Shown here one piece after another: positions 1,421-64,000 of a stretch of 64,000 nucleotides of DNA (position 1 is its first letter; every line of letters starts with the position of its first letter). Both the position numbers and the translations under genes were made by a program. The stretch comes from Mytilus galloprovincialis. Lineage: Eukaryota > Mollusca > Bivalvia > Mytilida > Mytilidae. The notes under the pieces were generated by a model. The model did not search any database, had not been told where the DNA came from, and saw nothing but the letters and a program-made list of their open reading frames with translations. The DNA lies in assembly GCF_965363235.1 (NCBI RefSeq), contig NC_134843.1, positions 1,550,001 through 1,614,000 on the forward strand, in the 5' to 3' direction.

Positions 1421-1659
1421 AAATGTTATTAAATAATAGACAAACCCTTCTAAGGCTAACATTGTCTGAGGCAAAGTTCTCAAATTGGTTGTGTTTATGC
1501 ATTTACTTGGACAAAACATCACAGTGAATTGTTTTAACGTGGCTGATATAACTCATTTTGTGTATTTTCAGGTTATTGTTATGGTGACCAGAAACAAAAG
1601 GACACAACAATTCGCATAGACTGTGATAAACTATGGACATTATATAACCAGTAACAAAA

Positions 1660-4600
1660 ATGTCAGTAAACACGTTTACGCTGTTTGTGGTTCTTCCAGA
1701 CGACAGTGTGTGCACGCTCAGAAACCTCGTTTCCGGTGTAAATATCGAAGAGATTAAAGCGAGGCTAGAATTGATAGCTGGACTTCCATCGCATATCTTT
1801 ATCTTAATATATCCTGATGGCGAAAAGTTACAAGACCATCAGAAACTTTTGATGCGAGAAAATATAAAAGATGGTTACGTTTTGAGAGTACATGTTATTG
1901 AACATTGGGAAACGTTATTTAACTCTGTCTTTAGAAACAATATAGAAAGTGTATACCACAATGGAGGGGTTCACTTGAAAGGAAATATGGTGATAAATGC
2001 CGAAGAGTCGGGGAAAATTGAAAACGCCGTTTACGATCGCGGATGTGTAGCTTTATATATGTCCAGTTTTCTTGGTTTACTACGCATGTGCAATATGTTA
2101 ATCACCGTTGGTAAGTATTGTTTTAACAGTTGTTTTTATGTTCGTCTCTTCGTGTTTTTTTGTGGATTTTTTTGCACTGTTGTCTATTTGCATTTGGTAA
2201 GTGTGTAATAAACGTATTATCATAAAAAAAATTATCGATGATATCCCTGGAAACGCACAGCAAGTTTTGCATCATAAACTCGCTATTTATTTTATGACCC
2301 TATCCGATTGACAGTTCATTTAAGACCCAAGTTACATATTGTCCACTGTTAAAGGTTCTGCATTTCATTTGATATTCATATGAACGGTACACAAACTGAT
2401 ATAACAGTACAAGGTTATAACAATTTATATGAGTCAGGAGATGCGGCACGATTGGCGATAAGACATTAAAGTTCAAATAAAGCGAATGTAAGAGGATAGA
2501 TGCTGAATAAAAGCAACAGTAATATACCGCTGTTCAAAAGTTATATATCGATTTAACTGAAACAAATCCGGGTCACAAATAAAACCAAGGGAAACACATT
2601 AACTATAAGAGGAAAACAACGGAACAACAATAACACTGAACTGGTACAAAACATAATACCAATATGCATAGAAACGGACTATTTGATAATAGTTGACATT
2701 TTTAGAAAAACAAATTAAATACTACCGTGTACACATTTTGCACACTACGTAATACAAAAATTCATATGAAAGAGATCGTTATGGAATTCAAAGTATATTA
2801 CGCAATGATAATTTCATAATTCATCGTATTATATTTATATTTGATTTAACTACCCACTTATGACGATCTATGATCACTTTCCAAAACATAAAAACCTAAT
2901 TGACCGATTATTTAAGTTTTTATAGTGTCTACACGAAGGTACTTTTTTTCAGATATACCGTAAAGAATACAAAATGTAGATGTTATAAAAAACAGCTTTC
3001 ATTTTATGAGTACGAAAAGTAAATGAAAACAAAACTAAGCTAGATATGATCCTATCGAAAGGATGGTCACTTTTTATACAATATTTATATTAGGGAACGT
3101 TTTTCACGTTACTTTATTTACAATTATTTTCTGTGTTTTTCAAGCAACACCTTCGATTCACATTCTACAATTCCTTCTATTCTTCTGTGGTAGTAAGTAA
3201 CAGTTGCCTGCCTTTCAATTGAAGATACGTGAGTCCTCAACATTTGAACATGATTGTAAATGGATCGGTAGTCCTCTAGTCCTTATTGACATTATTGCAT
3301 AGGGGTTGAGAGGACTCTAGGTTTATTTACCTCCTATACCTTGAGCCTATCAAATAATGCCATGTTTTAGCGATGTATTTAACATTGCCATAAAGCGCGA
3401 AGTTTGGCTAGCCACAAAACCTGGTTCAACCCACCATTTTTTCTTAACAGGTCCTGCACAAGTGAAGAATATGACAGCTGTTATCAAATGGTTCGTTTGT
3501 ATGTTTTTTGCATTGTCAGAGGTGTTTTTTTTTGTTGCACTTCTGTGTTCTGTTATTTCGTTTTTCGCCTCTTATAGTTGATTTGTACCCCTCGGTTTTA
3601 GTTTGTAACCCGAATTTTGTTTTCTCTCAATCGATTTATGACATTTGAATAGAAGTATACTACTGTTGCCTTTATTTATTGCACCGTTTTATTATCTCAG
3701 TTAATCTACTTGACACTTATCAAGATTCTCCAATTCATTTTCAGGTGTAGATATCAATGGAACTACGCAATTTGGGAGAACAGCACTACATGCAGCAGCA
3801 TCTAAAGACAACCTTATAACACTGAAGTATCTCATAGATCATGGTGCAAAAATAAACATTACAGATTTGTTAGGAAAGTCGCCATTAGATGTAGCGCAAA
3901 GCTGTGCGTCACTTATGTGTGAAAAAAATCTGAAAATCATGCAACTTAATTTACGTGGCAATAACAAAATGGCGAAGAATCCCAAAGCAATATATAATAC
4001 ACTTCAACTTTCTGACAAGAAACTTGTTAAAATTAATAAAGATCAGACGATAAGACCAAAATCATTAGTGGAAAGCAGAATTACTATAAATGATGATTCC
4101 CAAAAAACAAGACCACACACTCATTATACTCCGAGGCAAACATTAGGCAAAAGCCCTAAAGGTCCCAGAACGGTTGCATGGGTATCGATTCAAGACAGCA
4201 AAGTCAACCGAAATATTGGCAAGACGCCAAGCTATCATAAATTTGAAAACGTAACGAAGATGAAAACTTTAGATGAAAATGCTGTAACATGTAAACCGTT
4301 GCCACTATTGAAGAAGAAGTCATGTTTGAAATTTACACCCGGGGCTGATGAAAAAGCTATTTCTAGATCTACGCAGACAACACCCGTGGCATCTAAGACA
4401 GATGTGTCTACCACGCCTATGTTGTTTGCACCTCCTAGCAGCCGTTTGGATGGGAGCACTGTAGCAGATGAGATGAACACGTCCTTTTCAACTGAAGATC
4501 GTGCAGTGTCTGCTAGGACGAGATCTAGTAAATCTGGAAAACTTGTGTCGTTTTCTCACAAGGAAAGGTAAGTTTGAATTTCTTTCAATAGTATTTGCAA

Positions 4601-7305
4601 TATTGACTGTGGTGATTGTTGATGCGACGAATAGCAATAATTGTAAAGATAACAAAGATATATTGAATAATTTATTACCTTTTCATGTTATTCGTCGCAT
4701 ATCTCCTTTTTACTCACAGTGTATATATTTCATGTCATCAAATTTACAGTTAGTAAGGTTTATGGAATTTTTGGAATTTTGGATCCTCAATGCTCTTCAA
4801 CTTTGTACTTGTTTGGCTTTATATATATTTTGATATGAGCGTCACTGATGAGTCTTATGTAGACGAAACGCGCGTTTGGCGTACTAAATTATAATCCTGG
4901 TACCTTTGACAACTATTTACATCCTGGGTCGATGCCACTGCTGGTGGACGTTTCGTCCCCGAGGGTTTCACCAGCCCAGTTGTCAACACTTCGGTGTTGA
5001 CATGAATATCAATAATGTGGTCATTTTTATAAATTTCCTGTTTACATCCTGGTACCTTTGATAACTAATTATGTTGCTCAGTCTTTTGTTTTTTTATTTT
5101 GTGTTTTGTAAACTGTTGCAAAGCTCTAGTGTTTTTTATTTTGTGTTTTGTAAACGGTTACAAGTCTCTAGTAGTTTTTATTTTGTGTTTTGTAAACTGT
5201 TGCAAAGCTCTAGTGTTTTTTATTTTGTGTTTTGTAAACGGTTACAAGTCTCTAGTAGTTTTTATTTTGTGTTTTGTAAACTGTTGCAAGTGTCTAGTAG
5301 TTTTTCTTTGGTGTTTTACCATATCATTGTCAGTTTATGTTTTACTTATGATATCCGTTTGTTATCTTTTGCCCTTATTTTTGTAAATTATGTATAAAAA
5401 ATAGATTTCAGACGAATCGAACTGGTGTAGCTGAAAGGGGATTTTGATTTCGATGCTTGAAGACATTTTTTGAAATTAATTGCTATCCTTTTTGAACCGT
5501 AGATAATTTCCAGTGAAGGTCATTGCAGAAACACATTTCATTACTCTTCGAATTAAGTATTACAAGTTTTTATGGATGATAAGTTTAACACACATGTACT
5601 CCTTTTTAGTGAATGCAGATATTTTCGTCAGACGTAAGTTTTTTCGATGTTGTTGCACATAATGCATGTTTTAGTGTTTTGTGTAAATTTTGTTATTTAG
5701 ACCAATCCCAATCTATACATTATATATTGGAATATATCGATGATAGAATCAAATTCGCCATCGGCATCATGCTCTTTGTAGTATCAACTTTTAAAAGCTG
5801 AAAGCAGCGACTGAATGGTTTTCGTCTAAACGAAAGCGCACGCGTGCAGTTGCTGGAGATCGAAAACTTCCTAGAATGAGAAATTCCAAAACTCAGAAGC
5901 GAATTCTTTTTAATTGTATACAAAAAAAAAATGTTTTTATCATAACGATGAAAATTGATACTGTTACCCGATTTTCAAATTTGTATTATTCATATAATTG
6001 ACTTTACAAAAATGCATGTTTGAATAGTTGTGACTTAATTTCATTATGTATACCGACAATATTATTCATGTAATAAGAAATACTATCAGCTCCTTTCAAT
6101 TAATACAACATTTCAAAATAAGATTTCTAGTGTGCCAATGATCTCATGTAAGAATTTGATCGTTGTATGTACAGTCCACATTTGTTATTTCAATTACCAA
6201 AAAGAAAAATTTCTCGCATGTTCAAATATATATATATGAGAAATGTATTCATTATATTTTTAGACCCGAGTTTCCAGATTTTACTGAATCGTCCCGTGTT
6301 ATGAAGAGACGCATCAATCTAGCTGCCAATCGAAGTGCACAGCCTACCGACCAACGCGAAACTTCTACGCCAAAACGTTCAGGAGTGATCCATGATCGAT
6401 GGGCCGACAGAAAAAAAGTCTTCAATAAGAATGTTCGACAAGACATCTCAAGTAGCGACGACGATGACAGTGATTTCGACGATGATGACAGTGGTAATGG
6501 TTCTGAGGCTAATGCTGAGGCTTATGAAGCCTGGTTAAAGAGGAAAGAATTGGAAAGTAAACGAATGCCAAGAAAGGTAACTCGTCCTATCCATGACATT
6601 ATAAAAATAGGCAGCACTGAGGTGGGTGATGGTCGAAATCCTCCCGCGGAACATAACATTACAGCCTATAGAGACTGGTTTGAGAGACGAAAAACGAATA
6701 AGAGGACGCCAAATTTAGAACGAATTAAGTCCATGAAAGATTTTATGTCACAGAAGAAAATGCTGGAAGAAAAGCGCCAGAAACTTCTAATGACGGCCAT
6801 CTCATATGACGAATGGATGGACCAAGAATATGATCGTCGGGCGCTGATACGCAAGATTTTACAGGCGGATTATGAACAATTAAAAGTGATGGAACAAGAG
6901 AACGATAGGAATCCAGCTCCTGTGCAAAATGTAAATACAAAATGGCAGGAGGAGGTCATGAAACGTGAAGAAATGGAGAGAAAAAGAAGATTAATACAAC
7001 AAAGTTATAGTGAAGAAAAAGAAAAGTGGAGAAAGGAAATTATGAAAAATAGTACTGCCGTCTCACAGAATGACTGGCTACGCGGGAAAAATCCACAAAC
7101 TCCTCGATTATTGATGAGATCAAACTCGAAGGGAGCTCCCGGAAGTGACGTTAAACGAGCTGTAGAAGCTGATAAGGCGTACCAAGACTGGATGAAACGA
7201 AAACATTCAGAAGACATTTCGGATATTCAGAGGCAAGTGGAAACCGAAAGAGACATGCTCCACTCGTGTAGACAACGCCGCACCGCACAAGTTATCTCAT
7301 GTTAG
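1660..7305 (+). CDS. ANKUB1-like ubiquitin/ankyrin protein with Y-x-x-W C-terminal region
   Basis: Three coding exons join in phase: 1660-2110 (donor GTAAGT), 3745-4567 (after TTTTCAG, donor GTAAGT) and 6264-7305 (after TTTTTAG), giving 771 residues. Residues ~5-87 form a ubiquitin-like fold ending VLRVHVIEHWETLF, the layout seen in the second ubiquitin-like domain of ANKUB1. Residues ~126-200 hold two ankyrin-type repeats (RGCVALYMSSFLG; RTALHAAASKDN) split by intron 1. A basic, Ser/Thr-rich linker follows, then an acidic run (SSSDDDDSDFDDDDS) and four Y-x-x-W motifs (YEAWL, YRDWF, YDEWM, YQDWM) in a charged helical region like that of CCDC181/MAP9-type microtubule-associated proteins. The ATG has A at -3 and an in-frame stop 15 nt upstream, but an upstream exon ending near 1650 cannot be excluded, since vertebrate ANKUB1 has an additional N-terminal ubiquitin-like domain. 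Cellular role is not established here. Confidence 0.8.
2500..2640 (-). repeat. Diverged repeat fragment in intron 1 (family with GTATACTACTGTTGCCTTTATT)
   Basis: Reverse-strand similarity to the ends of the copies at 21590-22420 and 31787-32680: the phrases AAAAGCAACAGTAATATACCGCTG and AACCAAGGGAAACACATTAA are shared with changes. The rest of intron 1 (2111-3354) shows nothing I can name. Confidence 0.5.
3355..3690 (+). repeat. Interspersed repeat copy in intron 1 of the ANKUB1-like gene
   Basis: Matches the copies at 15415-15935, 21590-22420 (inverted) and 31787-32680: GTTTGGCTAGCCACAAAACC, CAACCCACCATTTTTTC and the terminal TATACTACTGTTGCCTTTATT. The open frame across it is a repeat translation. 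Confidence 0.7.
4839..4882 (+). ncRNA. Hammerhead ribozyme motif in intron 2 of the ANKUB1-like gene
   Basis: CTGATGA (4845-4851), stem II GTCT/AGAC (4852-4864), GAAA (4865-4868), palindromic ACGCGCGT (4868-4875) and cleavage triplet GTT ending at 4876. Stem I pairs GCGTCA (4839-4844) with TGGCGT (4877-4882) along all six positions, counting G-U pairs. Every invariant core base is present; the triplet is GUU rather than the preferred GUC, which the GUH rule still allows. It lies in the sense strand of the host transcript, so cleavage would cut the pre-mRNA inside an intron. Confidence 0.85.
4883..5075 (+). repeat. Structured repeat cassette following the hammerhead
   Basis: The phrase ATCCTGGTACCTTTGA appears twice (near 4892 and 5046), bracketing a segment with a perfect 8-bp hairpin capped by TTCG (GTCAACAC at 4982-4989, GTGTTGAC at 4994-5001) and a longer imperfect palindrome around CTGGTGGACGTTTCGTCC (about 4938-4975). 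The strong RNA fold suggests that the transcribed RNA is the functional form of this repeat; that is inference. Confidence 0.6.
5086..5310 (+). repeat. 42-bp minisatellite, two alternating unit types
   Basis: Five units of 42 bp (14 codons) alternate between a CTGTTGCAAAGCTCTAGT form and a CGGTTACAAGTCTCTAGT form, giving an 84-bp higher-order unit. Because 42 is divisible by three, frames stay open across the array, giving hydrophobic, Phe/Cys-rich translations that have no gene-like start or domain. Confidence 0.85.
5311..6263. other. Rest of intron 2, ANKUB1-like gene
   Basis: No repeat or exon recognised. The polypyrimidine-poor acceptor ATTATATTTTTAG at its end is used for exon 3. Confidence 0.5.
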
Positions 7306-18556: not shown

Positions 18557-21500
18557 TTAACAAGAACTATTCGAGTTTTCAAATTCATATGTATCTCTTA
18601 CAGAACTTGAATCAGACAAACACTCGCTTCCATCTTTGATGCATGCAGATTCATAATGTTTATTCAAGTACGACTTTAAAGCAAACGATTTATTACATCT
18701 TTTACATGTGTAATGTTTAAAGGCTGAATGAGTCTGCATGTGTGCTCTTAGATTGGACCTATCTGCGAATGCTTTGCCGCAGTGGGCACATCCAAACGGT
18801 TTCTCTCCAGTATGCGACCGTCTGTGACCTTGAAGGAGCCATGGCCGTGAAAACGATTTGTTGCATATGTCACATGTATGTTTTAGATTATGTGTTAGAA
18901 TATGCATTGACAATGCTGGCATGCTAACGTAAACCTTGTCACAGTGAGGACATTTCTTGGCCGACTGGCTGTCAATACTTCTGTGCGTCTGTTTATGGCG
19001 GGAAAGATTTGATGACGTGGCGTAGTCCTTACCGCATTCATTGCATGTATACCGTTGTCTAGTTACTTTTTCAATAGATTTTCGTCTGGAACGTCCATCG
19101 CTTATGAAGAAGGAATCATAAGTATAACCGATGGTTATCCCTTCGTTTTCAATGTCGTCAACGAAAATTTGAGAAGATGAGGACGATACAAGTGATATAT
19201 TTTCTGTTTCTTCATTATTGCAGGACGAAACTTCGGGTTCAGAAATTCGTCCGGATTCATCCGGGATATTTGCTTTTTGCTGTAGTGATGACGGAATAAC
19301 AATGTCTTGCATGTAGCCTGAAAACAAAACAATATCGATAACAGATACATTTTCCGTAAATATGCGTTTCTAATATACATTTTAAGCCGTATGACAATGC
19401 TTTACTAATACAGACTATAGATAAATGCATGAAGGGTTTCTCAATCGCTTAATGTGATTTATGAATGCCTTCTTAAAAATGGAGAATATACACAAAGAAT
19501 TAATTAAAAAGAAAAAACACAATCGCTAGAAAAAAAAATCGCGAAAAAACGAATAGTATTCCACACAATACTATTGAAATAAGTCAAAAAATTGGCCAAC
19601 ACGAACCCAATCAAAAACTTGGATTAAACTCAAGTGTTTTGGAAGGTTATAGGTTCTTGATCTGCAAGTGTCACTTAGTAAGTAGATTCGTATTCTTGTT
19701 TTTCTTCAAATATTATTTTGTGTAAATACGGCATATACTTCACTTATTTTGATCAATTCCTTAGTTTTTATCAATAAACGATACCCATTTAGATTCAGCG
19801 ACTCAACGGTATTTTGATTAAAAAAAATCAAATGTGAAATGATAGGCTTATACTACAGATACAGTTAAGTCGGCCTCATATCTTGACTTACATCTAGAAA
19901 TTGACAATGATGGTCGGTTGAAAACAAAACTTTACGACAAAAGAGATGATTTCAGCTTTCCAATTGTGAACTTTCCATTTCTAAGTAGCAACATTCCAGC
20001 AGCACCTGCATACGGGGTATATATCTCCCAATTAATACGATATTCCCGTGCTTGCATTTCCTATCATGATTTTCTTGATAGAGGGTTACTGCTCACAAAG
20101 AAGCTATTAAACTAAGAGTTCCAAATGGTGAAGTTGAAATCATCCCTTCGTTAATTTTACGGACGCCATCACGAGTTGGTTGACTGTTATGGAATAACCG
20201 TTTCACAAATGATATCGGATATGTTCCTTACGTCGTAACTACAATCCCCTTCCCTTTCATGAATGTGACCTACCGAATTAGACTATTTACCGGATTTGTT
20301 ATCACATAAGCAACACGACGGGTGCCGCATGTGGAGCAGGATCTGCTTACCCTTCCGGAGCACCTGAGATCACCCCTAGTTTTTTGGTGGGGTTCGTGTT
20401 GTTTATTCTTTAGTTTTCTATGTTGTGTCGTGTGTGCTGTTGTTTGTTTTTCTTTTTCATTTTTAGCTATGGCGTTGTCAGTTGGTTTTAGATTTATGAG
20501 TTTGACTGTCCCTTTCGTATCTTTAGTCCCTCTTTTATAATTCTGTGGAATGTATTATAACAACCGACAAATAACTCGAGAAACTCGAGGAAAAATAAGA
20601 AATAAAATGATGGTCATTCATACGGTTGTTGATAAAATGATACAGGAAGAGGATTATGAAAATTAAATTCGATACATTCATGTTTGTTTTTTTAATAAAA
20701 AAAAAACATTGCCAAAGTCAATTGCAGGAAATATAATGGGATTGATCAAACAAAGCATAATGAACAAAGGGTTTTAACTTCCAGTCGCGACGTTTCCTTT
20801 TTTTAAAACGTTTTATGATGGTAATAATTATTATAATAAATATATAGATATGAAAATATTTTAAAAAATGGTGATATTTATATGGAAAATAAAGGCTGTT
20901 CAAAACTCGTAAATCCATGGACAAAAAACAAAATCGGGGTAACAAACTAAAACTGAGTAAAACGCATTAAATACAAGAGGAGAACAACGACACAACATTA
21001 AAATGTAACAAAGTCTGTTTTTTGTTATATCTACTTTACGTGAGTCTGCATTTATGTATGCCGTCATACGACAAAATTATTTTTATGTCTACCTGTGCGA
21101 ATTTCAAACGCGCAATTTTACACCAGTAATGAAAACCTTCTTTCATTTATGGGTAGACTTTACATAGATAAATTCACCCGTATAAGAAAAGCAAAATGAG
21201 AATGTTAAATTTGATGTATGCCTTTTTGTGCTACTTTGTTACATTTGTTGTTTATGTAGTGATATTAAGATGATAACACAATATTGACTGTTGTACCCCT
21301 ATTTTTGACATTTTTACTCTTTGAGTATGTTTGTTTTGTTCATGCATCGTTGACAATGTAATGGAATTTGATGCGACTGTCATACAAGTGAGAGGTTTAG
21401 CTAGCTATAAAACCAGGTTCAATCCACCATTTTCTACATTAGAAAATGCCTGTACCAAGTCAGGAATATGACAGTTGTTATCCATTCGTTTGATGTGTTT

Positions 21501-33547: not shown

Positions 33548-58046
<24,499 letters not shown>

Positions 58047-58295
58047 TGTCAATGTTTTCCTACTTTATTCTGGTTCTTTTTATATTAATTTGAGGCAAAT
58101 CAGCAACAAAATTACAAACAAGGAACCAGTTATTTTAGAAAAGTGCCCTTCTGGGTCTTTTAAGCGCTTTAAAATAGAAAATATTTCGTTTGTTTGAATT
58201 GCAGATAATTGACACTGATCAAATTAAAAAAAATTGAAAATTGGTTTCGAGATCGAACTATTTACCTATTTACGAACCTGATTTAAGACACCACC
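58047..58295. promoter_or_regulatory. Divergent promoter between NUDT21 and METTL3
   Basis: Only 249 bp separate the two start codons, so both 5' leaders and the core promoters must fall here unless upstream non-coding exons exist. It is AT-rich without a CpG cluster; a near-palindrome TTAAGCGCTTTAA sits in the middle (about 58158-58170). No clear TATA box for either gene. Confidence 0.75.
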
Positions 58296-61200
58296 ATGTC
58301 AGATTCAGATGCATGGAGCGATATCCAAGCTATCAAAAGCAAACAGAGTAGCCTGAGAGCTAAAATGCTCCAGAGACGAAAAGAAAGAGAGGAAATTGCA
58401 GCCGAAATCACCAAGTCTAGCATCTCACCAACAATAAGCAGTGAAGGTGAAACACCATTATCTGTTTCTCATTGAAATTGTCCATTTTGCAACTGAAAAT
58501 TAGCACACAAAATAGCTGACCCATATATTTTTTTTCCATTGTCGTTAATGTTGATCTTATTGCTATTTTTACTGGAGGTCTCATGAATCTGGGTCTGTTC
58601 GCGAGTAATCACCTTCGCGCCCATTCACGTTGGCGCCCATTCACGTTCGCGCCCTTTCACTTTCGCACCCTACACTTTCGCTCTCAAAGTCCGTTCACAC
58701 CCTACACGTTGGAGACCAATTTTTATTGGTATTGTGTTATACAATTTGGAATCGAGTTTGGGTATTAAAGTGCATGAAGTGTATTGCTATTTATCAATAT
58801 TTTTTTCATTGTTTCTACATATAGTGAGGTTCTGATAACGTTTTTTTGACGTGTTGAATAAATCTTTATGTATTGCTCTACATAAATATGTTTTGTTCAT
58901 TGTTTCTAAGTAAAGTGAAATATTCTGACAATGTTTTTTATGTGTTGATAAAATCTTAATCATATTTTGTTAGTGTATTGCTATAAATATTTTTTTTTGT
59001 AAAAGAGATCAAATTTAGGAGCCAAGCTATTAAAAACAATTATCTCTCGTGATCTTCAAAGTTTTACTCACTCATACTAAGATAAATACATGCAGTATTT
59101 ACATCAAAGCAAGTTAAATCAACAATCATTATTTTTAAACACTCAATAATATTATCAAATTTAGCTGTTATAAATACCAATTAGCACTAATCATACATAA
59201 TTAACATTTTTAAAATAATTAATCATCAAATTAATAATAAAAAAAAAAATCCATATTATAATTCCTCAAATTTTATTCAAGAAAATAAAATTATTTGGTA
59301 TATATAATTTTTTATACAATCTAATAATTCAACTGAAATTCGAATAAAAATTGGGCACGAACATGTAGGGTGCTAACGGACTTCGAATTCTGTCTCTTTA
59401 CAAATTGAAAAGTTGCTAAATTTTTTGTTTCCGTTCTCTTAAATAAAGTTTGCTTCAACCAAATGTTATGAAACTTATACACAATACTTATTACCACAAA
59501 ACTCAGATCATGAGGAAATTTGGGTAGCATCACTTATAAAACTGTTCTTCAGTTTTGTCCCTTTATAACTTTATATGATATTCAAGCAATCAGTGTCCCA
59601 TGGACAAAATATTCCCCATTTATTTAATCTTGTATATGTATTTTGATATCATTCCTGTTGTGGAATTTACACCAATACATTTTTTATACGACCACAAAAA
59701 TTGAAAATTTTTTGGTCGTATATTGGTATCACGTTGGCGTTGTCGCTGTCGTCCAGATACTTTTAGTTTTCGCACTCTAACTTTAGTAAAAGTGAATAGA
59801 AATCTATGAAATTTTAACACAAGGTTTATGACCACAAAAGGAAGGTTGGGATTGATTTTGGGAGTTTTGGTCCCAATATTTTAGGAATTAGGGGCCAAAA
59901 AGGGCCCAAATAAGCATTTTCTTGGTTTTCGCACAATAACTTTAGTATAAGTAAATAGAAATCTATGAAATTTAAACACAAGGTTTATGACCAAAAAAGG
60001 AAGGTTGGGTTTGATTTTGGGAGTTTTGGTCCCAACAGTTTAGGAATAAGGGGCCCAAAGGGTCCAAAATTGAACTTTGTTTGATTTCATCAAAAATTGA
60101 ATAATTGGGGTTCTTTGATATGCCGAATCTAACTGTGTATGTAGATTCTTAATTTTTGGTCCCATTTTCAAATTGGTCTACATTAAGGTCCAAAGGGTCC
60201 AAAATTAAACTTAGTTTGATTTTAACAAAAATTTAATCCTTGGGGTTCTTTGATATGCTAAATCTAAAAATGTACTTAGATTTTTTATTATTAGCCCAGT
60301 TTTCAAGTTGGTCCAAATCGGGGTCCAAAATTAAACTTTGTTTGATTTCATCAAAAATTGAATAATTGGGGTTCTTTGATATGCCAAATCTAACTGTGTA
60401 TGTAGATTCTTAATTTTTGTTCCCGTTTTCAAATTGGTCTACATTAAAGTCCAAAGGGTCCAAAAGTTTGATTTTAACAAAAATTGAATTCTTGGGCTTT
60501 TTTGATATGCTAAATCTAAACATGTACTTAGATTTTTTATTATGGGCCCAGTTTTCAAGTTGGTTCAAATCAGGATCCAAAATTATTATATTAAGTATTG
60601 TGCAATAGCAAGAAATTTTCAATTGCACAGTATTCAGCAATAGCAAGAAATCTTCAATTGCACAGTATTGTGCAATAGCAAGAAATTTTCAATTGCACAG
60701 TATTGTGCAATAGCAAGAAATCTTCAATTGCACAGTATTGTGCAATAGAAAATATTTTTAATAGCACAGTATTGCGCAATAGCAAGAAATATCTAATTGC
60801 ACAATATTGTGCAATAGCAAGAAATTTTCAATTGGAGTTATCTTTCTTTGTCCAGAATAGTAGTTGAATCAACTTAAATCATTGTTTTATACTTTATACA
60901 ATGCATATTCACTTTTACTACCGACTGATAAATTAAAACAATCTTTACCATTCAGTGACAACAAGCACTTTATTTTATATTTTAATATTTTATGATGTAT
61001 TTAAATGAGTAGTTATTGTTGCAAACTCCATTAGAAATTTGAATTGAGATCAGTTTTGGAAAAAGGTAAAAGGGGATGTGAAAAAAAAATGGGGGGGGGG
61101 GGGTTAAATTTTTCTCATTTCAGATTTCATAAATAAAAAGAAAATTTCTTCAAACAATTTTTTGAGAGGATTAATATTCAACAGCATAGTGAATAACTCA

Positions 61201-64000
61201 AAGGCAAAAAAAATATTTTAAGTTCATTCATTCTGTGTCAGAAACCTATGCTGTGTCAACTATTTAATCACAATCCAAATTTAGAGCTGAATCCAGCTTG
61301 AATGTTGTGTCCATACTTGCCCCAACCGTTCAGGGTTCAACCTCTGCGGTCGTATAAAGCTGCACCCTGCGGAGCATCTGGTTTGAATTTGAATTTAAAT
61401 AAAAATTTTGTACAAGAACTTTTAAATAAATTTTGCCTCAAATCATGAACTTTATTTTTCAGATACAAAGAGCCAATCAGAATCAGCCAGTCCTGTTAAA
61501 GCAATACCATCTACTTCTTCCAGTCCAGTAAAGTCCACACCGGCTGCTGAACCTACAAAGATAGACCCTGTTCTAGAGAAGAAAGTCATGTTGGCCCTCT
61601 GTGACATAGATCTAGACATACCCTGTAGTTCTAATGTTATAGCAGAACATTCATCTAAAATACTCAAACAGACTGTTAAACTTGATGTTGTGGAAGAATT
61701 ACTGAAGAAATTTGCAGGACAACAGCTGATAAAGTAGGTGAAATAAATATGAACATGATGAAAGAAATATACATGTATAAGATATGAGTTATATGCCAAT
61801 ACTAGTACTATAGCAATGCAGCGACACCAAAATAAAAATTTGTTTATCTCTGCAGTTAATTAATGTAGATTTCCAAAACCAGGAGAAAATAAAATCCATA
61901 TGCTTTAATGGTACATTTCAATATGTCACCATGGTCATAAGGGATTGAAATGTGTAGACATTTTGTAATCAGAGCAAGACTAGTTGACATGGAGTCAGGA
62001 CAATTTGTTCATGTAGTAAGTGCAGGATGGCATGTTCTCTTGTTGACTATAACCTTATGTCTTAGCCTGTTAAGAATCTATCGCAACCTGTCAGTGTAGT
62101 GCAAGGCAGGGTATTATAATGACAATTTTCACCTCTGAATGTTAAGCAGCGATCAATCCATCAAACCATTATCCAAATAAAATATCCAATTTTAAGGTAT
62201 ATGAATACACCTTATCGCTAATTGTCTGCCATTACTGGACATCACACAGGTTCCTGTAAAATGGTGGCATCATAATACAAAATATTTGATGCCACAATGG
62301 AAAAGTGAATGTTGTATGATGTAAATAGTTCAAGCGGCACAGATTTTAGGTTCAGGAGGGAATAGGGATACATTGTAAGGTGTAAAGAAATTTAAATATT
62401 TTAATGATGTAATATTTTTCTTTCAGTATAACAGTAAAAGATGACAGTTTAGAAGATGAACAAGGCAAAATTACTGTCAATAGTATGGATATAACTAAGG
62501 TCTGTCTTATTGTATAAATTATGAAAGATAGCAAAATTACATTATTTAAGAACAATATCAAGTTAGGGGAGGAATTTGTAAAAGTGGAAATTCTCTTGTT
62601 TTCAAATCCTAATAAAACTGTCATATTGTAATGTATACGTTAATATTTTCAAATGAAATATTGTTTATTCTATGTTAGGTCTCAATTTACTGTCAATGGC
62701 ATGGCTATATATATAAGGTCTGTCTTAATGTCTCTATAACAAAAGGTAGGCAGAATACATGTAAATGGTAAATTTTTGATTGTGGTTCTTCATGTTGAGG
62801 TGTAATACCACCATTGATTTTCCCCTATAAGTCTTTGCTACATTTGCACTTTTCAAAAAAATGTGTAGAATTTATCTTTGTTTCAAATAAAAAAATACTT
62901 GGCAAGAGTAAAGTTTTAACCTGTCCAGTAGTATAGAAAAAAATTCACATAACATTTCATTGCATATAAGAAAATAACCATCACTGTAAGTTTTGATTGG
63001 ATGATATTTCCATCAATTCCATAAGAGTCATTGACAGTTTACATTTCATGGATATTCAAATGCTTAATTTTAAACATGAGTGTTGCATTAAAATAGGAAT
63101 AGCAGTACTTTATTCTTCAATTCTTTAAATTCGTAATTAGTCAAGGTTTCTTTACATTGAACTGTTTTACTGAAAATTTGAAGCTACTACATATTTCTCA
63201 ATTTCACAGTATTTTTATAATTCTGTTTTATTTTAGTTATCTGCCTTGACAAAAGAAAGCGATGACAAAGTATCTAAGAAACGGAAACATGAAGGGTATG
63301 TATCATGAGACATAATATATATACAACACCACTTAGATCTTTAGGAAAGTCACATTTTATTTAAAGACATAAAAATGTTAAAGTTTCATTAGAGCTGTTT
63401 AAATAGCTGTAAGGTATTGAAATTAGTTTGTTCAAAATATTGTCAATTTACAAAATCCTCTAAAAATCAGAATTTGTATGATTTTCAATGAGACAATCGT
63501 CCACAAAAGACCAAATTTGTTGAGATTTGCAACTGTAATTCAAGGTTTGGCCTTCAACACAGAGCAATATTGGTTGTTCTACTTTTTTGTCTTCAATTTG
63601 GTATTCTGTAGAAAATCTTTATCTCATAACTAGCTTATATAATAGCTTTATCTTAACTGTAAGGTCTATCCAAGGGCAAGCAAAATTACATGAATATTGT
63701 ATGTTCTTTTAATATAATTGATAGATTAATTGTTGCTTTTGTACTTTTAATTTGTTTTGTGATTGATATAATTTGATTTGTTCCAGAGATAGCAGTTCTG
63801 AAGAACCAGGGGTAAAACAATCTAAAGTTAAAGACAACAGCATTGAGGTATGTTGTCTATAACATGTCATAAAAACTATCTCAGTCATCTCTAGCATTGA
63901 GGTATGTTGTATATAACATTTCATAAAAACTGCCTCAGTCATCTCTAGCATTGAGGTATGTTGTCTATAACATTTCATTAAAACTATCTCAGTCATCTCT
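58296..64000 (+). CDS. METTL3: METTL3, catalytic subunit of the m6A mRNA methyltransferase (N-terminal part)
   Basis: Five coding exons before the window ends: 58296-58446, 61463-61733, 62427-62499, 63237-63295 and 63787-63847, phases 1, 2, 0, 2, 0, together 205 residues. ATG in a perfect CCACCATG context. The start MSDSDAWSDIQAIKSK with the following basic helix matches the METTL3 leader helix that contacts WTAP. Exon 2 has DPVLEKKVMLAL and VVEELLKKFAGQQLI, like human DPELEKKLLHHL and VESLLQKFAAQELI; exon 3 ends MDITK and exon 4 starts LSALTKES, aligning with HSKLSAMMG. KKRKHEG in exon 4 is a likely nuclear signal. The CCCH fingers and the DPPW catalytic domain would lie beyond the window. 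Donor of exon 3 (GTCTGT) is weak; the exon 5 donor is tandemly repeated. Confidence 0.94.
58607..58722 (+). repeat. ~16-bp GC-rich tandem repeat in METTL3 intron 1
   Basis: Diverging units TTCGCGCCCATTCACG, TTGGCGCCCATTCACG, TTCGCGCCCTTTCACT, TTCGCACCCTACACT. TTCGCGCC resembles an E2F site. A related inverted piece (GTGCTAACGGACTTCGAA) is near 59370. Confidence 0.65.
59682..61383 (-). mobile_element. GCTCCGCAGGGCGCAGC repeat, complete copy without insertions
   Basis: Read on the minus strand it starts CAGATGCTCCGCAGGGTGCA (61383) and ends with a hairpin ATACGACC / GGTCGTAT and TATAAAAAA (59682-59720). Middle: repeated phrases GATATGCxAAATCTAA and the 33-bp TTGCACAATA array (60590-60835). It serves as the uninterrupted reference for the copy at 38598-45363. 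No coding frame. It fills much of METTL3 intron 1. Confidence 0.75.
61734..63236. other. METTL3 introns 2 and 3
   Basis: Apart from exon 3 (62427-62499) no feature is recognised. A partial echo of exon 3's end (GTCAATGGCATGGCTATATATATAAGGTCTGTC) occurs at about 62692-62725. Confidence 0.5.
63839..64000 (+). repeat. Three 54-bp tandem units that include the METTL3 exon 5 splice donor
   Basis: Units start at 63839, 63893 and 63947. Each begins with AGCATTGAG|GTATGT, the last nine bases of exon 5 and its donor, and ends with CTCAGTCATCTCT. The array reaches the window edge, so more units may follow. Confidence 0.95.

What the first reader, a model, noticed from the sequence alone, without database searches (positions are those of the whole stretch)
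58047..58295. NUDT21 and METTL3 share a 249-bp head-to-head promoter
Seen: the two start codons lie 249 bp apart on opposite strands. Known: CFIm25 (NUDT21) selects poly(A) sites and METTL3 writes m6A, and in mammalian cells the m6A writer subunit VIRMA has been reported to associate with CPSF5/CPSF6 and to influence poly(A) choice. Inferred: co-expression from one promoter would couple the two processes at transcription level. To my knowledge these genes are not neighbours in humans.
Basis: partly seen in the sequence, partly recalled or inferred. Interest (0 to 1): 0.75.

Follow-up and report, generated by a model that had tools for sequence, protein, structure and literature searches.

The report
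Two mRNA-processing genes sharing one promoter
In this apparently molluscan genome the genes for a poly(A)-site selector (NUDT21) and the mRNA m6A-writing enzyme (METTL3) start 249 bases apart in opposite directions; this is real but is most likely an ordinary shared-promoter gene pair, and nothing here shows that the pairing links the two processes.

Summary
NUDT21 (start codon 58046-58044, -) and METTL3 (start codon 58296, +) leave exactly 249 bp between start codons. Both genes are intact: NUDT21 has seven coding exons reaching back to 33548; METTL3 has 16 coding exons (550 aa, all 15 introns GT-AG) running past the window to window-equivalent 83633. The 249 bp occur once in the 1.385-Gb assembly. 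A shared promoter is likely but not shown, because no start-site data exist here. NUDT21 exon 1 plus spacer keep CpGs (observed/expected 0.93) while most of both gene bodies is CpG-poor (0.19-0.47), which is modest support. The inferred m6A/poly(A) coupling is not supported. Divergent pairs within 1 kb hold >10% of human and 31.6% of fly genes. In vertebrates NUDT21 is paired with OGFOD1, an enzyme of different function, whose relative here lies on another contig. METTL14 shows no recognised head-to-head gene. In human cells METTL3/VIRMA loss and CPSF5 loss shift 3'UTR length in opposite directions. Against this, 41 of 101 vertebrate-conserved divergent pairs encode interacting proteins, so coupling is not excluded. 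Conservation in other molluscs could not be tested. New member of a known kind; modest interest.

The parts
58047..58295 (.). 249-bp spacer between the NUDT21 and METTL3 start codons; presumed bidirectional promoter plus both 5'UTRs; GC about 0.30; CpG observed/expected 0.89 (5 CpG)
57925..58046 (-). NUDT21 exon 1 (start codon 58046-58044), donor GTAAGC
55844..56044 (-). NUDT21 exon 2
55114..55177 (-). NUDT21 exon 3
53701..53790 (-). NUDT21 exon 4
53164..53239 (-). NUDT21 exon 5
52586..52700 (-). NUDT21 exon 6
33548..33569 (-). NUDT21 terminal coding exon (R)FNFIYN-stop, after a 19-kb intron; preceded by TTTCTTTTCAG
58296..58446 (+). METTL3 exon 1, start context ACCACCATG
61463..61733 (+). METTL3 exon 2
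62427..62499 (+). METTL3 exon 3
63237..63295 (+). METTL3 exon 4
63787..63847 (+). METTL3 exon 5; eleven more coding exons follow outside the window, to window-equivalent 83633 (G000 C6:1633633), with the DPPW catalytic domain
58077..58084 (-). TATAAAAA 31-38 bp upstream of the NUDT21 start codon; may be chance (37 TATAAAAR sites in the window, 28 expected)

Best explanation
An ordinary divergently paired gene locus. Two RNA-processing genes, NUDT21 and METTL3, probably both broadly expressed, start from two back-to-back core promoters inside one short (<=249 bp) open, unmethylated stretch. Open chromatin made for one gene would serve the other, so their expression would be loosely correlated, as for many divergent pairs. 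No special coupling of m6A with poly(A)-site choice is needed. Shown: orientation, distance, intact genes, single copy, a CpG notch. Inferred: the transcription start sites, the open chromatin, broad expression and co-expression.
For: Both genes are intact and conserved. Exact spacing 249 bp with in-frame stops just upstream of both starts. Single locus. Most of both gene bodies is CpG-depleted (NUDT21 52586-57073 o/e 0.39, last intron 0.47; METTL3 59401-61462 0.37, 61463-63847 0.19, 72500-83633 0.45), whereas NUDT21 exon 1 plus the spacer reads 0.93, 11 CpG in 371 bp; left out of the bodies are the repeat-derived 58586-59400 (1.26) and the 54-bp array 63848-72499 (not computed). Published base rates: 31.6% of D. 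melanogaster genes in divergent pairs with start sites under 1 kb apart, 59.0% of pairs under 400 bp, mostly housekeeping genes without a TATA box (PMC2670823: abstract, sections 5 and 8); over 10% of human genes (PMC12672016: passages). NUDT21-OGFOD1 is discussed there among 101 pairs conserved over all 46 vertebrates, OGFOD1 being called an enzyme of different function. The only OGFOD1-type (Ofd1_CTDD) matches in this genome, 2 of 2 scored, lie on C1, not C6.
Against: No start-site, chromatin or expression data. The CpG notch is small: 96 of 1555 sliding windows within the two gene bodies reach the same values, as do 360 of 1326 outside them in 1-33500. METTL3 exon 1 itself reads low (0.43, 3 CpG). 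A TATAAAAA sits upstream of NUDT21, atypical for housekeeping pairs, though it may be chance. Acceptor-like AGs exist in the spacer (58203 +, 58216 -), so a 5'UTR intron is not excluded. 41 of 101 vertebrate-conserved divergent pairs encode directly interacting proteins against 1 of 101 random pairs, so functional pairing is not rare among conserved pairs. The 5' regions of WTAP and VIRMA were not resolved.
Confidence: 0.75

Rival explanations
1. The pairing is kept by selection because CFIm25 and the m6A writer must be dosed together: they push 3'-end choice in opposite directions, and one promoter holds the balance.
For: Human data: VIRMA associates with CPSF5/6 in an RNA-dependent manner; loss of VIRMA or METTL3 lengthens 3'UTRs of several hundred mRNAs; loss of CPSF5 shortens over 2800, 84% of them m6A-marked (PMC5826926 abstract and passages). 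Among 101 vertebrate-conserved divergent pairs 41 encode directly interacting proteins, against 1 of 101 random pairs (PMC12672016 passage).
Against: NUDT21 is paired with OGFOD1, of different function, in vertebrates. METTL14 shows no recognised head-to-head gene: 8 of the 29 minus-strand frames listed over about 8 kb upstream were scanned against Pfam and none matched; a gene of short exons is not excluded. CPSF5/6 knock-down hardly changes total m6A. No conservation data.
Confidence: 0.1
2. The start codons are close but the promoters are separate or overlapping: one gene has a non-coding first exon upstream (inside the other gene or beyond), so the transcripts overlap antisense and interfere rather than share a promoter.
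For: Acceptor-like AG sites lie in the spacer on both strands (58203 +, after TTTCGTTTGTTTGAATTGC; 58216 -, after CAATTTTTTTTAATTTGATC).
Against: Such AGs are expected by chance in AT-rich DNA. In flies most divergent pairs have start sites under 400 bp apart, and only 5.2% overlap at the 5' ends.
Confidence: 0.13
3. The adjacency is an assembly or misjoin artefact.
For: One assembly only; no second assembly could be compared.
Against: The spacer is continuous sequence in a 103-Mb contig, 561 bp matching once at 100%. Both genes continue intact on either side.
Confidence: 0.02

Closest known systems
Divergently paired genes / bidirectional promoters (human DPGs, PMC12672016; Drosophila DPGs, PMC2670823)
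   Same: Opposite strands, starts under 1 kb apart, conserved genes, spacer in the commonest size class
   Different: This partner combination was not found in the papers searched; start sites and co-expression not measured; spacer AT-rich (GC 0.30), with a possible TATA box
Vertebrate NUDT21-OGFOD1 divergent pair (PMC12672016, passages)
   Same: NUDT21 is one arm of a divergent pair
   Different: The partner here is METTL3; the OGFOD1-type domain lies on another contig
CDT2-INTS7 bidirectional pair (PMC2194621; seen in the search listing only)
   Same: Head-to-head pair whose title calls the intergenic region evolutionarily conserved
   Different: Different genes; how its promoter was studied was not read

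Membership tests
Divergently paired genes (bidirectional promoter pair) | Two adjacent protein-coding genes on opposite strands, 5' ends facing | tested here: met
Divergently paired genes (bidirectional promoter pair) | Start sites under 1000 bp apart | tested here: inconclusive
   Start codons are 249 bp apart; TSSs themselves unknown
Divergently paired genes (bidirectional promoter pair) | Correlated expression | not testable with these tools
   No expression data held
Divergently paired genes (bidirectional promoter pair) | TATA-less promoter, typical though not required | tested here: inconclusive
   TATAAAAA at 58077-58084 (-), but the motif is frequent in the window (37 found, 28 expected)
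Conserved metazoan microsynteny pair | Same neighbours in other phyla | tested here: inconclusive
   Vertebrates differ for NUDT21: OGFOD1 is its partner. Other molluscs not available; G000 has no relatives here
METTL3 (m6A writer) | MT-A70 domain with DPPW and METTL3-type N-terminus | tested here: met
NUDT21 / CFIm25 | NUDIX_2 domain, CPSF5-type sequence throughout, FNFIYN C-terminus | tested here: met
   (FNFIYN as the expected C-terminus is recalled)

The most novel reading that the evidence does not exclude
A lineage-conserved molluscan bidirectional promoter holds the ratio of two antagonists of poly(A)-site choice, CFIm25 (distal) and the m6A writer METTL3 (proximal), so that any change in promoter strength leaves 3'UTR choice balanced; in vertebrates, where NUDT21 pairs with OGFOD1 instead, the two vary separately.
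Probability: 0.08. Interest if true: 0.55.

Novelty: new member of a known kind. Interest (0 to 1): 0.27.

Why it matters
If the pair proved conserved across bivalves and co-expressed, it would be a natural case in which poly(A)-site selection and m6A writing share one transcriptional control, testable with ordinary expression data. As it stands it is a clean example of NUDT21 having a different divergent partner in vertebrates (OGFOD1) and in this invertebrate (METTL3), which warns against reading function into one tight head-to-head pair.

Tried and rejected
Looking for the same gene pair as stray host DNA in prokaryote genome contigs and viral contigs: 44 and 28 pattern matches, none confirmed.

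Literature for the pair: METTL3+NUDT21+'bidirectional promoter' gave 1 paper, on lncRNA by title; METTL3+NUDT21+mollus gave 0; METTL3+microsynteny gave 1, on Ataxin-2; Mytilus+METTL3 gave 8, none about gene order by title; (at least 3 of 6 terms, 1903 papers, 15 listed) listed no paper holding both gene names. Searches gave background listings only. PMC2871058 and PMC3815023 hold neither gene name in the main text. The library is open-access only, and all ten searches are used.

Within-genome controls: METTL14's first exon (ATG at C9 about 63538110) has no recognised divergent gene. Of 29 minus-strand frames of 45 aa or more listed over about 8 kb, 8 were scanned against Pfam without a match; my first impression that they are transposon pieces was by eye and is not confirmed. 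WTAP and VIRMA 5' ends were not resolved, so they are not counted. CPSF6 was not tried.

The TATA box as evidence for a focused NUDT21 promoter was set aside: too frequent in this DNA. CpG-rich 58586-59400 (o/e 1.26) was left out of the promoter argument because it is a dispersed repeat (944 first-look candidates, 40 scored).

VIRMA's upstream frames, first called Mab-21-like by eye, are now described by what Pfam gave.

Full report
What is there. The NUDT21 start codon is 58046-58044 on the - strand and the METTL3 start codon is 58296-58298 on the + strand; the 249 bases between them are 58047-58295. METTL3's frame has a stop ending at 58286, and NUDT21's frame has a TAA seven codons upstream (read by hand), so both ATGs are good starts unless a 5'UTR intron intervenes.

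The genes are intact. NUDT21's first six exons (58046 down to 52586, GT-AG) give 222 aa, matching Pfam NUDIX_2 at 1.6e-78 and PDB CPSF5 chains at 3.6e-113. The missing C-terminus, (R)FNFIYN-stop, lies behind a CAG at 33569, after a 19-kb intron. METTL3 exons 1-5 are in the window and eleven more follow; all 16 join to one open frame of 550 aa with GT-AG at all 15 introns, ending at window-equivalent 83633. Its N-terminal 205 aa (typed with one junction residue different) hit METTL3 chains at 3.5e-13; the other four of six rows are E 0.13 or worse. MT-A70 matches lie at C6:1627694-1630962, and the joined catalytic pieces give METTL3 at 1.2e-106. NUDT21 occurs once (6 of 6 scored matches are its exons), and 561 bp around the spacer match once at 100%.

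The promoter. The spacer has GC about 0.30. CpG observed/expected is 0.39 over 52586-57073, 0.47 in the last NUDT21 intron, 0.37 over 59401-61462, 0.19 over 61463-63847 and 0.45 over 72500-83633, but 0.96 in NUDT21 exon 1 and 0.89 in the spacer; together the last two have 11 CpG in 371 bp, o/e 0.93. Left out are 58586-59400 in METTL3 intron 1 (1.26; a dispersed repeat) and the 54-bp array 63848-72499 (not computed). This is the pattern expected (recalled, for invertebrates with gene-body methylation) if both genes are methylated along their bodies with an unmethylated start region between them. It is modest evidence: 96 of 1555 sliding windows inside the two genes reach both values (windows starting at 43.5-45.0, 74.9-75.2, 78.8-79.0 and 79.9-80.4 kb), METTL3 exon 1 reads only 0.43, and in 1-33500, outside the two genes, 360 of 1326 windows reach them. 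A TATAAAAA lies 31-38 bp upstream of the NUDT21 ATG, but there are 37 TATAAAAR in the window against 28 expected. Acceptor-like AGs exist on both strands of the spacer, so a 5'UTR intron is possible.

What it most likely is. A divergently paired gene locus. Pairs with start sites under 1 kb apart hold 31.6% of fly genes, 59.0% of them under 400 bp apart, mostly housekeeping genes without a TATA box; of 1,770 fly pairs with data, 58.2% were positively and 22.8% negatively correlated in at least one dataset (PMC2670823: abstract and sections 5 and 8 read). Over 10% of human genes are so paired (PMC12672016: passages). The same paper discusses NUDT21-OGFOD1 among 101 pairs conserved over all 46 vertebrate species and says the two differ in function. 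In this genome the only OGFOD1-type domain matches are on C1 near 97.38 Mb (2 of 2 scored). NUDT21's partner therefore differs between lineages, in line with the conclusion that divergent pairs arose independently in different lineages (PMC2670823 abstract).

The coupling idea. In HeLa cells VIRMA associates with CPSF5/6 in an RNA-dependent way; VIRMA or METTL3 depletion lengthens 3'UTRs, CPSF5 depletion shortens over 2800, and CPSF5/6 knock-down leaves total m6A almost unchanged (PMC5826926: abstract and passages). The biology links the two, but in opposite directions, and nothing in the sequence shows that the promoter exploits it. For the idea: 41 of the 101 vertebrate-conserved pairs, against 1 of 101 random pairs, encode directly interacting proteins. 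As a small control, METTL14 (C9) has no recognised head-to-head gene: of 29 minus-strand frames listed over about 8 kb upstream, 8 were scanned against Pfam and none matched; a gene of short exons is not excluded. WTAP and VIRMA were not resolved.

Limits. No paper on the pair was seen in the open-access library.

Verdict. Observation confirmed; ordinary kind; the specific pair was not found in the papers searched; coupling unproven and, on present evidence, unlikely.

Noticed in passing
window 63839-64000 continuing to window-equivalent about 72280 (L013): METTL3 intron 5 opens with a 54-bp tandem array of about 8.4 kb in which exon 5's own end and 5' splice site (AGCATTGAG|GTATGTTG) is repeated: 153 exact copies of that 17-mer in the joined stretch, the first being the real donor. 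The 70 genome matches listed all lie in this array (one first-look candidate, a lower bound). Using any later donor would read GTA TGT TGT CTA TAA from exon 5, an in-frame stop (by hand), so the array is a field of potential decoy donors inside the m6A-writer gene. Whether they are used is unknown.
   Followed up: partly
window 57074-57718: Foldback element in NUDT21 intron 1: 257-nt arms, 79% complementary, with several copies of a palindromic CCCTCTATAGAGGG motif and almost no CpG (o/e 0.05). It is a dispersed family: 356 first-look candidates, 40 scored, nearly all of those full length at 95-99% identity, so recently spread.
   Followed up: partly
window 58586-59400: Dispersed repeat in METTL3 intron 1: 944 first-look candidates (40 scored), the copies partial and mostly at 67-85% identity. 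It holds a CpG-rich 16-bp tandem repeat and a 91-bp repeat, and its two ends match inverted (58684-58733 against 59337-59386, 82%).
   Followed up: partly
window 39296-42474: Retroelement in the last NUDT21 intron: PHD-like and endonuclease matches just under their cut-offs, and reverse transcriptase (PF00078, 8.5e-23), split over several frames. A similar-looking run of about 35-bp repeats occurs beside it (about 42.9-43.2 kb, by eye) and in METTL3 intron 1 (60594-60834).
   Followed up: no
window 1648-7302 and 18557-19369: + strand frames with ubiquitin-like (below cut-off), ankyrin and coiled-coil (CCDC34, below cut-off) matches (ANKUB1 came to mind, recalled), and a - strand C2H2 zinc-finger frame with at least 5 fingers.
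   Followed up: no
L001 (G000 C14:968415-971786): A single 467-aa open frame with an MT-A70 match, unlike the many-exon METTL3 and METTL14 genes; probably METTL4 (name recalled).
   Followed up: no
L024-L028 (G000 C6 12.0 Mb): VIRMA (VIR_N) lies on the same contig, 10.4 Mb from METTL3. Upstream on the opposite strand are frames of 168-339 aa; of two scanned, one has weak nucleotidyltransferase matches below cut-off (E 0.00047 and 0.0035) and the other none.
   Followed up: partly
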